Source: Desulfoscipio geothermicus
Lineage (GTDB): Bacteria; Bacillota; Desulfotomaculia; Desulfotomaculales; Desulfallaceae
DNA length: 63,202 nt
Direction of reading: 5' to 3'
Assembly (NCBI GenBank): GCA_016841905.1
Contig: JAENYF010000012.1
Location: 1-63,202 of the forward strand
A program made the translations under genes and the position numbers. Below, one piece after another: positions 48,751-50,945 of this stretch. The notes below the pieces were generated by a model that saw nothing but the letters and a program-made list of their open reading frames with translations, was not told where the DNA came from and did not search any database. The stretch's first letter is position 1. Each line of letters starts with the position of its first letter.

Positions 48751-49230
48751 TTAATAGCCCATCTCCTCTAAAATTCTGGCTAGAGTACGCAACCGCTCTC
48801 CGAGCAGCTCATCATCATTACTGAGCGCCTGGCTGAATAGCTTAATATCCTCATCGATCTTTTCATTATCGGTACAGACAGCCACCGTCATAGCGTCGCC
48901 CTGTAAACCCACCCGATCGATGACCGGCTTTTCGGGATTATATAATTTCTCATACCGGTAAGCTTCTTGAAAATGTAATTTTGCCCGGCAGACTAAAATG
49001 GCCAGGTCGAGCACACGGTGCAGCGGCATTTCCTCAGATTGCCTGGACCATTTTTCACCCGTATGCCGCCACACTTTGGCTGATATTTCTACTTTACCCC
49101 GGTCATTCCATTGCGCCAGGCCTAATGAAAGGCCCTTAGCATCCGTATCATACGCGTACCTGCCGTCCACATTTTCGTAGTTTTCAGAGACAATCACCGG
49201 TTTATGTTTTAACGTAGTCGGTATCTTCAT
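48751..49230 (-). CDS. Conserved-looking protein of unknown function with a regulated promoter
   Basis: 159 residues, ATG preceded by GAGGGGG. Features: VIVSENYENVDGRYAYDTDA near the N-terminus, LAQWNDRGKVEISAKVWRHT with a Trp-rich beta strand pair, and LHRVLDLAILVCRAKLHFQE helix. Soluble. The leader carries a consensus-quality promoter (49283-49311) and a 23-bp operator-like element (49249-49271) that recurs before the GIY-YIG gene at 50509-50868. No function can be assigned; co-regulation with the GIY-YIG gene is the main clue. Confidence 0.78.
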   Translation of the reverse strand: MKIPTTLKHKPVIVSENYENVDGRYAYDTDAKGLSLGLAQWNDRGKVEISAKVWRHTGEKWSRQSEEMPLHRVLDLAILVCRAKLHFQEAYRYEKLYNPEKPVIDRVGLQGDAMTVAVCTDNEKIDEDIKLFSQALSNDDELLGERLRTLARILEEMGY

Positions 49231-49248: not shown

Positions 49249-49271
49249 TTAGTGATTTACTAAATTACTAA
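49249..49271 (-). promoter_or_regulatory. Shared operator-like element, copy 1
   Basis: 23 bp made of TTAGT / ATTTACTAAA / TTACTAA pieces with internal direct and inverted symmetry. It matches copy 2 (50890-50912) at 21 of 23 positions. It lies between the -10 box and the ATG at 49230. Confidence 0.7.
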
Positions 49272-49282
49272 ATGTTGATTTG

Positions 49283-49311
49283 ATTATAGCTTTGCAGCTT
49301 TTGAATGTCAA
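49283..49311 (-). promoter_or_regulatory. Promoter of the 159-residue protein gene
   Basis: Minus strand TTGACA (49306-49311) and TATAAT (49283-49288), both perfect, with a 17-base spacer. Confidence 0.8.
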
Positions 49312-49325
49312 GGCTAACAAAAAAT

Positions 49326-50228
49326 TTAAACTCCCTCACAGTTAAACTCCGGAATAAAGCTTTCCAAAGCAGTTTCTCCTTGCTGAATAAAACCATTTTC
49401 TATACCTAGAGCGATAGCGTAATCCACCAGAGCATTATATTCCTGCTCGGTTACCCTCCGATTAATTTCCGGATATTGATTTATCTGTGCTAACGGAGTG
49501 TACTGGTTCATAATACTGAGCAAAATTTTATCGCCAAAAGAATCGTATAAATATTTTAATATCAGCTTTGAATCCTCGAGATACCCGGGAAGTGTTAAAT
49601 GCCTGACCAGCACACCCCTGGTTAGCAAACCCTCTTCATTGAAAGCAGGCTCACCGGCCTGACGCACCATTTCCTTAATTGCTGCTAAAGCTATAGCAAA
49701 ATAGTCCGCGGCATGGGAATATTTCCTGGCCACCTCTTGGGACATATATTTACAATCCGGCAGGTAGATATCCACGTAACCCTCCAGCAACCGCAGCGTC
49801 TCTACTTTTTCGTAACCACTGCAATTATAGACAATTGGTACAACAAGACCTTTTCCTCGCGCAAGTATTAAAGCTTCGATAATCTGCGGCACGTAATGGG
49901 TGGGGGTTACTAAATTGATGTTATGGGCTGCTTGCCCCTGAAGTTCTAAAAAGATATCCGCCAGCCGGGCTATGGTGATTGGCTTACCGGCCAGTCCTTG
50001 CGCAATATGATAATTTTGGCAATAGACACAGCCTAGTGAGCATCCGGAAAAGAACACCGCACCTGAGCCATTGGCCCCGGAAAGGCATGGTTCTTCCCAC
50101 ATATGCAAAGCAGCCCTCGCTACCACCAACTCCGCTGTTTGCCTGCAGTACCCTCGCTGCCCCCGGGTACGGTCTACCTGACAAGCCCGCGGACATAAGG
50201 TACAATTCTTTAACAATGTTGAACTCAT
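49326..50228 (-). CDS. Radical SAM protein, PflA-activase-like
   Basis: 300 residues. The SAM/[4Fe-4S] motif is in FFSGCSLGCVYCQNYHIAQG (Cys-x3-Cys-x2-Cys). An N-terminal Cys group CTLCPRACQVDRTRGQRGYC (9-28) suggests a further metal site. The rest resembles the widespread pyruvate-formate-lyase-activating-enzyme-related family of anaerobes, whose substrates are mostly unknown. It begins about 85 bases after the 3' end of the tRNA-Glu gene, with the tRNA terminator between them. Confidence 0.88.
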   Translation of the reverse strand: MSSTLLKNCTLCPRACQVDRTRGQRGYCRQTAELVVARAALHMWEEPCLSGANGSGAVFFSGCSLGCVYCQNYHIAQGLAGKPITIARLADIFLELQGQAAHNINLVTPTHYVPQIIEALILARGKGLVVPIVYNCSGYEKVETLRLLEGYVDIYLPDCKYMSQEVARKYSHAADYFAIALAAIKEMVRQAGEPAFNEEGLLTRGVLVRHLTLPGYLEDSKLILKYLYDSFGDKILLSIMNQYTPLAQINQYPEINRRVTEQEYNALVDYAIALGIENGFIQQGETALESFIPEFNCEGV

Positions 50229-50250
50229 TAGGTTTCTTCCCTTAACAAGA

Positions 50251-50295
50251 TTTTAAAAGAATAAGCCATCTTTCCATAACAGAAAGATGGCTTAT
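50251..50295 (-). terminator. Terminator after tRNA-Glu
   Basis: Perfect 13-bp stem (50261-50273 with 50283-50295) and a 9-base loop, followed leftward by UUCUUUU. It lies 18 bases past the CCA end of the tRNA. Confidence 0.85.
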
Positions 50296-50312
50296 ACAAA
50301 TAACATTCTTAT

Positions 50313-50387
50313 TGGTAGCCCCAAGGGGAATCGAACCCCTGTTTCCGCCTTGAGAGGGCAGCGTCTTTACCGCTTGACCATGGGGCC
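50313..50387 (-). tRNA. tRNA-Glu (anticodon CTC)
   Basis: 75 bases with encoded CCA. Acceptor stem GGCCCCA pairs with the 3' strand TGGGGCT (one G-U at the end), discriminator A. The anticodon loop CTCTCAA puts CTC at positions 34-36, reading GAG. The T-loop GGTTCGATTCC and the D-arm GTCAAGCGGTAAAGAC are intact. Solitary gene followed by a strong terminator. Confidence 0.95.
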
Positions 50388-50508
50388 ACAGCAAATATTA
50401 TTATATAGGTTTGTTGCACGAAAAACAAGCCCATCTTTGGATTTGGCAAATTGTTTCGCCAGGCAATTAAATCTGCATCAGGCAAAAACCATACTTTAAC
50501 TTTTGTTT

Positions 50509-50868
50509 TTATGGTAAAGACGGCTTATTGTAGCCTCTGTCTCCATAGGGCTGTAATTTCTCCAACCACGGTTTGGTCATTTGTTTAAGTTCCCAGCGCC
50601 TGTCGGTTACTTCGCCGGCATCCTTTTCCTCCAGCACCTCGTAGGTGAAGACTTCAGGCCCCAGATCCTTCCAGTCCTGCTGCAGCTGGGTATTGGCAAA
50701 CCTGCCCATGTCCAGCTGGGCCTGAATGGTCAGCCACTTGTTTTTTAAGTTAGGATAAGAAGCAACGTAAATTTTGCCGCTGGCTTTATTGGTTATTTTT
50801 ATGACACCCATGTAGGTCTTAATCTTCTTGTACTCCTCCAGCAACTCCTTGCGTTTTTGCTTATCCAT
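50509..50868 (-). CDS. GIY-YIG-like protein with degenerate catalytic motifs
   Basis: 119 residues. It aligns with the GIY-YIG nuclease fold: MGVIKITNKASGKIYVAS corresponds to the GIY and YIG strands, and VFTYEVLEE to the strand with the metal-binding Glu. However GIY reads GVI and YIG reads YVA, and the usual Arg after YIG is not evident, so nuclease activity is doubtful. The leader has a good promoter (50916-50945) and an operator-like element (50890-50912) shared with the gene at 48751-49230. ATG with AAAGGA upstream. Confidence 0.82.
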   Translation of the reverse strand: MDKQKRKELLEEYKKIKTYMGVIKITNKASGKIYVASYPNLKNKWLTIQAQLDMGRFANTQLQQDWKDLGPEVFTYEVLEEKDAGEVTDRRWELKQMTKPWLEKLQPYGDRGYNKPSLP

Positions 50869-50889
50869 GTTTTTATATCCTTTCAGCTC

Positions 50890-50912
50890 TTAGTAATTTA
50901 CTAAACTACTAA
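50890..50912 (-). promoter_or_regulatory. Shared operator-like element, copy 2
   Basis: 23 bp differing from copy 1 (49249-49271) at only two positions. It lies three bases downstream of the -10 box and 22 bases before the ATG at 50868, where a bound protein would block transcription. Confidence 0.7.
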
Positions 50913-50915
50913 CAA

Positions 50916-50945
50916 ATTATAACCCTCCCCAATACTAAATGTCAA
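50916..50945 (-). promoter_or_regulatory. Promoter of the GIY-YIG-like gene
   Basis: Minus strand TTGACA (50940-50945) and TATAAT (50916-50921), both perfect, with an 18-base spacer. Confidence 0.78.

What the first reader, a model, noticed from the sequence alone, without database searches (positions are those of the whole stretch)
49249..50945. Two neighbouring genes share a strong promoter and a 23-bp operator
Seen directly: copies at 49249-49271 and 50890-50912 agree at 21 of 23 bases; both lie between a consensus TTGACA/TATAAT promoter and the start codon. The element combines a direct repeat and a palindrome built on TTTAGTAA. The genes code for an unknown 159-residue protein and a degenerate GIY-YIG protein; the intervening radical SAM and tRNA genes lack the element. 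This looks like a small regulon with an unidentified repressor, a candidate for an undescribed system.
Basis: partly seen in the sequence, partly recalled or inferred. Interest (0 to 1): 0.7.

Follow-up and report, generated by a model that had tools for sequence, protein, structure and literature searches.

The report
DUF6530 gene and its tandem boxes
Two neighbouring bacterial promoters carry the same array of short DNA boxes, and comparison with relatives and small plasmids suggests that the boxes are read by the uncharacterised protein (DUF6530) made from one of the two genes, which would make it a self-regulating DNA-binding protein of a new type.

Summary
The 23-bp elements at 49249-49271 and 50890-50912 match at 21 of 23 bases, lie between a TTGACA/TATAAT promoter and a start codon, and are the only two copies in the genome. 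The element is three tandem 7-bp palindromes, TTASTAA, at 8-bp pitch. The 159-residue protein is PF20140 (DUF6530); the other is a degenerate GIY-YIG domain. Upstream of 89 distinct canonical DUF6530 genes, 86 carry at least two such boxes, against about 1% of shuffled sequences. In 398 Bacillota genomes array and DUF6530 co-occur strongly. The boxes also precede partner genes (GIY-YIG, an AAA/VWA ATPase), but GIY-YIG is not found in 11 of 30 DUF6530 genomes tested. DUF6530 also sits on small proteobacterial plasmids, where the same box recurs at 9-, 12- or 7-bp pitch. Forms with boxes share residues 1-75; a form without boxes keeps the C-terminal half instead. Best reading: DUF6530 itself binds the boxes through its N-terminal domain and represses its own and its partners' genes. 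Binding is inferred, not shown.

The parts
48751..49230 (-). DUF6530 (PF20140) gene, 159 aa: proposed box-binding autorepressor
   Evidence: structure model pLDDT 92.1
49249..49271 (-). Array A: three TTASTAA boxes (minus strand TTAGTAA 49265-49271, TTAGTAA 49257-49263, TCACTAA 49249-49255), 8-bp pitch
49283..49288 (-). -10 hexamer TATAAT of the DUF6530 promoter, 11 bp before array A
   Evidence: read directly
49306..49311 (-). -35 hexamer TTGACA of the DUF6530 promoter
   Evidence: read directly
50509..50868 (-). Degenerate GIY-YIG domain gene, 119 aa: proposed target/partner
50890..50912 (-). Array B: three boxes (minus strand TTAGTAG 50906-50912, TTAGTAA 50898-50904, TTACTAA 50890-50896), 8-bp pitch
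50916..50921 (-). -10 hexamer TATAAT of the GIY-YIG promoter, 3 bp before array B
   Evidence: read directly
50940..50945 (-). -35 hexamer TTGACA of the GIY-YIG promoter
   Evidence: read directly

Best explanation
DUF6530 is a sequence-specific DNA-binding protein. Its N-terminal domain (about residues 1-75: N-terminal arm, a beta-meander with the AQWNDRG loop, and the KVWRxTGEKWSRQSEE strand region) reads the 7-bp palindrome TTASTAA. Several molecules occupy tandem boxes just downstream of the -10 and block RNA polymerase, so DUF6530 represses its own gene (autoregulation) and, in trans, its partners: here the degenerate GIY-YIG gene, elsewhere an AAA/VWA ATPase. The C-terminal half does two jobs that vary by subfamily: it sets the spacing of neighbouring molecules (pitch 8 bp in Bacillota; 9, 12 or 7 bp in proteobacterial plasmid forms, whose C half is largely dissimilar) and, in the Bacillota forms, works with the partners. 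SHOWN by computation: boxes, co-occurrence, positional link, pitch differences, partition of conserved residues. INFERRED: binding, repression, cooperativity, the role of the C half. The signal that relieves repression and the purpose of the partners are not known.
For: (1) 86 of 89 distinct canonical DUF6530 genes have >=2 boxes (each >=6/7) at 8-bp pitch within 160 bp upstream, 1.06% in Markov shuffles. At pitches 6, 7 and 9-14 at most 3 of 89; for four scrambled AT-rich boxes at most 1 of 89; upstream of 554 other ORFs in the same loci 21, of which 4 are not near a family gene. Some of the 89 came from array searches; in loci brought in by the protein or its coordinates 41 of 43, and in the phylum sample's fetched loci L144-L169 26 of 26. 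(2) In 398 Bacillota genomes: DUF6530 in 64, array in 53, both in 47, Fisher p = 6.6e-40 (relatedness not corrected). (3) In 100 genomes (own and relatives) all 14 with a site of <=2 mismatches have DUF6530. (4) GIY-YIG is not found in 11 of 30 DUF6530 genomes, several of which still have the array at DUF6530; DUF2087 and AAA/VWA are not found in the window's genome. DUF6530 is the only gene seen throughout. (5) Of 24 genomes with a canonical GIY-YIG 23 have DUF6530; the one without (Paenibacillus cisolokensis, a draft) has no array. GIY-YIG genes next to or fused with DUF2087 have no array in front (18 loci). (6) On plasmids of another phylum the same box precedes DUF6530 at a different pitch: of 18 proteobacterial loci 13 have P <= 0.004 for a constant-pitch array with boxes >=5/7, 12 have P <= 0.002 with boxes >=6/7; e.g. 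9 bp x5 in Aeromonas hydrophila, 12 bp x5 in two Acinetobacter plasmids. One plasmid with two boxes is 2,593 bp with four annotated genes (that gene table can be incomplete). (7) A scan of 2.9 million viral contigs for the 9-bp-pitch pattern gave 34 stretches, one with a DUF6530 gene 45 bp from the array. (8) Double dissociation: residues 1-75 are 68% identical to the canonical consensus in plasmid forms and 33% in the box-less form; residues 76-159 are 21% and 57%; 24 of 26 positions specific to canonical plus plasmid forms lie in residues 1-72. N half pI 8.0, C half 4.9. (9) Box columns 3-5 (A, S, T) are constant in 278, 277 and 277 of 278 boxes although boxes were accepted with one mismatch anywhere; the gap from -10 to array is 3-4 or 11-12 bp in 49 of 85 promoters scoring >=9 of 12, an 8-bp register.
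Against: No binding or expression data. Neither Foldseek search of the high-confidence model found a known DNA-binding fold, and Pfam sees no known DNA-binding domain in the pieces tried. An unlinked host regulator cannot be excluded by co-occurrence alone. Six of 398 genomes have an array match without DUF6530, and the reversed pattern matches in 10 of 398 (my count of the table), so some array hits are chance. 17 of 64 DUF6530 genomes lack the strict three-box pattern; several of these have two-box arrays, the box-less form or partial genes. Three of 89 canonical genes have one box only (L027, L202, L211). Among 18 proteobacterial plasmid loci, L271, L273 and L274 show no significant array, L263 and L266 weak ones (P 0.02-0.03), and Thiothrix L272 only with the laxer box rule; L261 (a Bacillota plasmid) shows none. 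Klebsiella/E. coli forms have only two boxes about 70 bp from the start. For one search, 14 of 18 proteobacterial proteins were used (L258, L272, L273, L275 left out) and four of the 14 (L263, L266, L271, L274) have weak or no arrays themselves; the box-less group has 7 sequences; members are related. Repression rather than activation rests only on position.
Confidence: 0.75

Rival explanations
1. A separate, unlinked host transcription factor binds the boxes and controls DUF6530, GIY-YIG and AAA/VWA.
For: Most operators are read by dedicated HTH or ribbon-helix-helix proteins (general knowledge); DUF6530 has no recognised DNA-binding fold.
Against: Arrays are almost confined to genomes with DUF6530 and to DUF6530 and its partners; among the array loci examined no regulator gene with the array in front was recognised; the box follows DUF6530 into proteobacterial plasmids while its pitch changes; box presence tracks residues 1-75 of DUF6530.
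Confidence: 0.15
2. The array is first of all a maintenance (centromere-like) site and DUF6530 a single-protein stability factor, as StbA/stbDR of R388 or Omega/parS of pSM19035; promoter control is secondary. (Not exclusive with DUF6530 binding the boxes.)
For: DUF6530 sits on small plasmids, some mobilizable, without the partners; tandem boxes over the own promoter are the layout of stbDRs and parS (passages of PMC3098194 and PMC9499535).
Against: In the window it is chromosomal, and a second array stands before a different gene; arrays have only 2-6 boxes; no ParA/motor gene was seen beside it in the annotated plasmid regions.
Confidence: 0.2
3. The degenerate GIY-YIG protein is the operator-binding regulator.
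For: Its gene carries the element; GIY-YIG domains are fused to DUF2087 proteins in relatives.
Against: Not found in 11 of 30 DUF6530 genomes, several of them with the array; DUF2087-linked GIY-YIG genes and P. cisolokensis have GIY-YIG but no array.
Confidence: 0.03
4. The sites are 7-1-7 inverted repeats of a Fur/PerR-type regulator.
For: Two adjacent boxes make a 15-bp 7-1-7 arrangement (recalled knowledge of Fur boxes).
Against: Box orientation is free: of 24 two-box arrays >> 16, >< 3, <> 3, << 2; and pitch varies between subfamilies.
Confidence: 0.03

Closest known systems
Omega repressor / ParB of pSM19035 (ribbon-helix-helix; 7-bp heptads WATCACW)
   Same: Short boxes in contiguous arrays over the promoters of its own and other genes, either orientation allowed, one dimer per box (passages of PMC9499535).
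   Different: DUF6530 is 159 aa with a predicted beta-meander plus helices, no ribbon-helix-helix seen; the box is TTASTAA; the pitch varies by subfamily; no ParA partner seen.
MetJ (ribbon-helix-helix; tandem 8-bp met boxes) - recalled, no paper read
   Same: Palindromic boxes at 8-bp pitch, expected cooperative binding, autoregulation.
   Different: No sequence relation seen; different box; no link to methionine genes in the loci examined.
StbA/stbDR of plasmid R388
   Same: DNA-binding protein acting on direct repeats around its own promoter, with copies of the box at other promoters (passages of PMC3098194).
   Different: Different box (9 bp spaced by 2) and operon; a stability role of DUF6530 is untested.
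PF20140 (DUF6530)
   Same: The window protein is a full-length member.
   Different: Family has no assigned function; no paper of the held library contains the word DUF6530.
GIY-YIG domain of I-TevI (PDB 1mk0)
   Same: Clear profile match, E = 7e-12.
   Different: The position of the catalytic Arg is Lys here and Arg in only 4 of 53; the GIY Tyr is Ile here, Tyr in 11 of 53; probably not a nuclease.

Membership tests
PF20140 DUF6530 | Profile match over curated cut-off | tested here: met
   299.1 bits, cut-off 23.7, full length 1-159
GIY-YIG nucleases | Sequence similarity to the fold | tested here: met
   1mk0/1ln0 E about 7e-12 with the 53-member profile; Pfam gave no hit for the window protein alone
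GIY-YIG nucleases | Catalytic residues (GIY Tyr, YIG Tyr, Arg, His; roles recalled) | tested here: not met
   Window: Ile23, Tyr34 (kept), Lys44, Phe57; Arg at 44 in 4 of 53 homologues
Array-binding autorepressors (Omega/MetJ-like mode) | Tandem boxes of fixed pitch over the own promoter | tested here: met
Array-binding autorepressors (Omega/MetJ-like mode) | Protein binds the boxes and represses | not testable with these tools
   inferred from co-occurrence and position only
Ribbon-helix-helix proteins | RHH fold or sequence similarity | tested here: inconclusive
   No Pfam hit other than DUF6530 for the window's two pieces; Foldseek PDB best E 0.82; the monomer model gives extra strands and helices. 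These searches are weak for small domains
Plasmid maintenance (StbA/Par-like) systems | Effect on plasmid loss | not testable with these tools
   only context

The most novel reading that the evidence does not exclude
DUF6530 defines a new DNA-binding fold: a conserved N-terminal reader of the palindrome TTASTAA, joined to exchangeable C-terminal halves that act as rulers setting the box pitch (7, 8, 9 or 12 bp). It spreads between Bacillota chromosomes and small proteobacterial plasmids and, in Bacillota, governs a mobile module with a catalytically dead GIY-YIG protein and an AAA/VWA ATPase. A box-less sister form has swapped to another operator (TCTACGGAGCGTGGATT).
Probability: 0.5. Interest if true: 0.85.

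Novelty: new variant of a known kind. Interest (0 to 1): 0.72.

Why it matters
It turns a domain of unknown function found across Bacillota and on small plasmids of Enterobacterales, Aeromonas and Acinetobacter into a concrete, cheaply testable regulator with a known target sequence. If right, it adds a DNA-binding family with no counterpart found in the PDB by Foldseek, and a natural experiment in which one box is read at four different pitches. It also ties a degenerate GIY-YIG protein and an AAA/VWA ATPase to one operon logic, giving a handle on what that module does.

Tried and rejected
DUF2087 as regulator: found next to DUF6530 in some relatives, but not found in the window's genome. GIY-YIG as regulator: rejected. 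Fur-type 7-1-7 reading: orientation free. PDB sequence search for DUF6530: best E 0.18, not credible. Defence library: no DUF6530 in PADLOC, only weak homing-endonuclease hits for GIY-YIG; PHROGs none for DUF6530. Viral scans for 8- and 12-bp pitch (4 and 24 stretches): no DUF6530 on the stretches held; 33 of the 34 stretches of the 9-bp scan likewise, so most are probably chance. Papers: DUF6530 0 hits; two or more of four box sequences 0; GIY-YIG with DUF2087 0; MetJ/met box 0; one broad query 0; DUF2087 gave 5 papers (listing only); MetJ with ribbon-helix-helix 5 (listing only). Other two-box sites in the own genome (contigs C8, C45, C74) number 3 against 4 for the reversed control and were not followed. 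In one search the upstream stretch of fusion genes was taken before the GIY-YIG domain, not before the gene; redid it before the gene.
Full report
CHECK. The two 23-bp elements exist as described. Read on the minus strand they are three tandem boxes each: TTAGTAA-T-TTAGTAA-A-TCACTAA (49249-49271) and TTAGTAG-T-TTAGTAA-A-TTACTAA (50890-50912). With up to 3 mismatches these are the only two sites in the 3.08-Mb genome, and the reversed control gives none. Each lies between a consensus promoter and a start codon; array A begins 11 bp and array B 3 bp after the -10, one box apart in register.

THE GENES. The 159-aa gene is DUF6530 (PF20140, 299 bits). The 119-aa gene is a GIY-YIG homologue (profile match to I-TevI 1mk0, E = 7e-12) in which the position of the catalytic arginine is Lys (Arg in 4 of 53) and that of the GIY tyrosine is Ile (Tyr in 11 of 53), so it is probably not an active nuclease (residue roles recalled). 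The nearest named relative is Sporotomaculum syntrophicum, with the same gene order and both elements (L003).

WHERE THE ARRAY OCCURS. In 100 genomes (own and relatives), 14 have a site of <=2 mismatches to the consensus and all 14 have DUF6530. 17 of the 18 such sites lie just upstream of DUF6530 or GIY-YIG (my reading); the exception is G013:C25. In 398 Bacillota genomes DUF6530 is in 64 and the three-box array in 53, both in 47; the reversed pattern is in 10 of 398 (my count). The six genomes with an array match but no DUF6530 were confirmed to lack it, and in the one locus looked at in each no family gene is beside the match (L043; L170, L183, L217, L218, L220). Seven further arrays fetched because their gene was unknown proved to lie before DUF6530 (six) or AAA/VWA (one). 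Array sites that stay without a family gene are two in G126 (L215, L216) and one in G202 (L219).

HOW TIGHT THE LINK IS. Of 89 distinct canonical DUF6530 genes 86 have at least two boxes at 8-bp pitch in the 160 bp upstream; in shuffles 1.06%. Some of the 89 entered through array searches; in those that entered through the protein or its coordinates it is 41 of 43, and in L144-L169 26 of 26. Other pitches give at most 3 of 89, scrambled boxes at most 1, and 554 other ORFs give 21, of which 4 are not near a family gene. Columns 3-5 of the box are constant in 278, 277 and 277 of 278 boxes, while each box was allowed one mismatch anywhere. The orientation of S is free (24 two-box arrays: >> 16, >< 3, <> 3, << 2), and the array starts 3-4 or 11-12 bp after the -10 in 49 of 85 promoters scoring at least 9 of 12 (sequences are related, so this is not a clean statistic).

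PARTNERS. Arrays of at least two boxes also precede GIY-YIG genes that stand apart from DUF6530 (L003, L004, L017, L023, L025), a GIY-YIG gene that stands first in its operon (L203) and AAA/VWA genes (L007, L008, L011, L022, L134). Against this, L018 and L024 (GIY-YIG) and L015 (AAA) show none or one box there. L173 is listed without an array because its GIY-YIG frame overlaps DUF6530, which has one, and L008's GIY-YIG follows the AAA gene. The AAA/VWA protein is AAA_5 plus a CobT-like VWA in L022. It was not found in the window's genome (a search without positive control), nor was DUF2087, another neighbour in relatives.

WHO READS THE BOXES. GIY-YIG is not detected in 11 of 30 DUF6530 genomes tested (G134, G146, G185, G202, G218, G223, G257, G306, G330, G444, G479), several of which have the array at DUF6530. 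Conversely, of 24 genomes with a canonical GIY-YIG 23 have DUF6530, also where the array stands before GIY-YIG or AAA at another locus; the one without DUF6530 (P. cisolokensis) has no array. G104 and G119 have DUF6530 but no hit to the strict three-box pattern. GIY-YIG genes beside or fused to DUF2087 genes have no array in the 300 bp before the gene (18 loci; most of these genomes lack DUF6530). So DUF6530 is the common factor.

THE PLASMID TEST. DUF6530 occurs on 109 or, with another query, 118 plasmid records, led by Klebsiella, Escherichia, Enterobacter and Aeromonas; many of the listed ones are under 10 kb. In complete E. coli genomes it is found in 23 of 5,426 (21 of 25 places on plasmids). 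The proteobacterial proteins keep the N-terminal ~75 residues but have a largely dissimilar C half. I fetched 22 plasmid regions (L257-L278) and tested 20; L261 (no array) and L278 (truncated gene) were left out. Of the 20, two are Bacillota (Listeria L277, Enterococcus L260) with 8-bp arrays of 4 and 5 boxes. Of the 18 proteobacterial ones, 13 have a constant-pitch array at P <= 0.004 per locus with boxes of at least 5/7, allowing any pitch from 7 to 13, and 12 at P <= 0.002 with at least 6/7: 9 bp in Aeromonas L259 (4 boxes), L262 (5), L264 (4), E. coli L265 (2), Pseudomonas L269 (2); 12 bp in Acinetobacter L267 (5), L268 (5), L270 (3); 7 bp in the related E. coli/Klebsiella forms L257, L258, L275 (2 each) and, only with the laxer rule, Thiothrix L272 (4); Citrobacter L276 has 7- and 9-bp steps. 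L263 (0.03) and L266 (0.02) are weak; L271, L273 and L274 are not significant. Several of these loci are close relatives. The scan of viral contigs for three exact boxes at 9-bp pitch gave 34 stretches, of which one (L301) has a DUF6530 gene beside the array, a motif-first recovery.

DOUBLE DISSOCIATION. A second Bacillota form (operon GIY-YIG, DUF6530, AAA/VWA, in five loci then an XRE-like gene; L142/L076, L195-L201) has no array (0 of 8 with two boxes in 300 bp) but shares a 17-bp block TCTACGGRGCRTRGATT upstream in 8 of 8. Against the canonical consensus, residues 1-75 are 68% identical in plasmid forms and 33% in this form, residues 76-159 are 21% and 57%; 24 of 26 positions shared only by canonical and plasmid forms fall in residues 1-72 (44 canonical, 14 of 18 plasmid and 7 box-less sequences; four of the 14 have weak or no arrays). 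Genomes G394, G457 and G478 hold both forms, and the array stands before the canonical-type gene or, in G478, its operon. The simplest reading is that residues 1-75 read the box and the C half serves partners and spacing.

STRUCTURE. With 51 diverse sequences AlphaFold2 gives pLDDT 92.1 and pTM 0.87: strands 10-15, 31-38, 49-56, 61-63, helix 70-92, strands 103-108, 113-118, helices 125-138, 140-156. No PDB or BFVD match at E <= 0.001. The first ten residues and the 41-50 stretch are the less confident parts (block means 80 and 75), yet much of them is conserved in box-bearing forms, as expected of DNA-contacting segments (inference).

MECHANISM. Boxes just after the -10 would block initiation, so DUF6530 is most simply an autorepressor that also represses its partners. 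This is the layout of Omega (heptads over its own and other promoters; PMC9499535, passages) and of the StbA repeats (PMC3098194, passages), without sequence or fold similarity shown. What relieves repression, and why small plasmids carry DUF6530 without the partners (copy control, maintenance, or interference with a resident module), is open. No paper of the held library contains the word DUF6530.

Noticed in passing
L142, L195-L201, upstream of the GIY-YIG start: 17-bp block TCTACGGRGCRTRGATT conserved in 8 of 8 operons of the box-less DUF6530 form: likely a different operator.
   Followed up: partly
L106, L114, L115, L116, L117, L119, L122: Single reading frames with DUF2087 and GIY-YIG domains, with weak HTH hits before DUF2087 in the one scanned (L106); no array in front.
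   Followed up: partly
L195, L196, L197, L199, L201: XRE-type HTH gene downstream of the AAA/VWA gene in the box-less operons; the L201 one has weak desulfoferrodoxin/zinc-ribbon hits after its HTH.
   Followed up: no
G002:C7:78710-79186, G042:C5:87042-87338, G186:C48:19807-20283: DUF6530 copies with internal stops; also decayed GIY-YIG remnants in G157 and G036: the module is gained and lost.
   Followed up: no
L271, L267, L269: Plasmid DUF6530 genes lie near a viperin-family gene (Moraxella), ArdA (Acinetobacter) and a VRR-NUC gene (Pseudomonas).
   Followed up: no
L257:822-1301, L258:2138-2617: A 159-aa lipoprotein-like gene follows DUF6530 on small E. coli/Klebsiella plasmids.
   Followed up: no
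L215, L216 (G126): Arrays of several exact boxes not next to a DUF6530-family gene, in a genome where only the box-less form was found: chance or remnant sites.
   Followed up: partly
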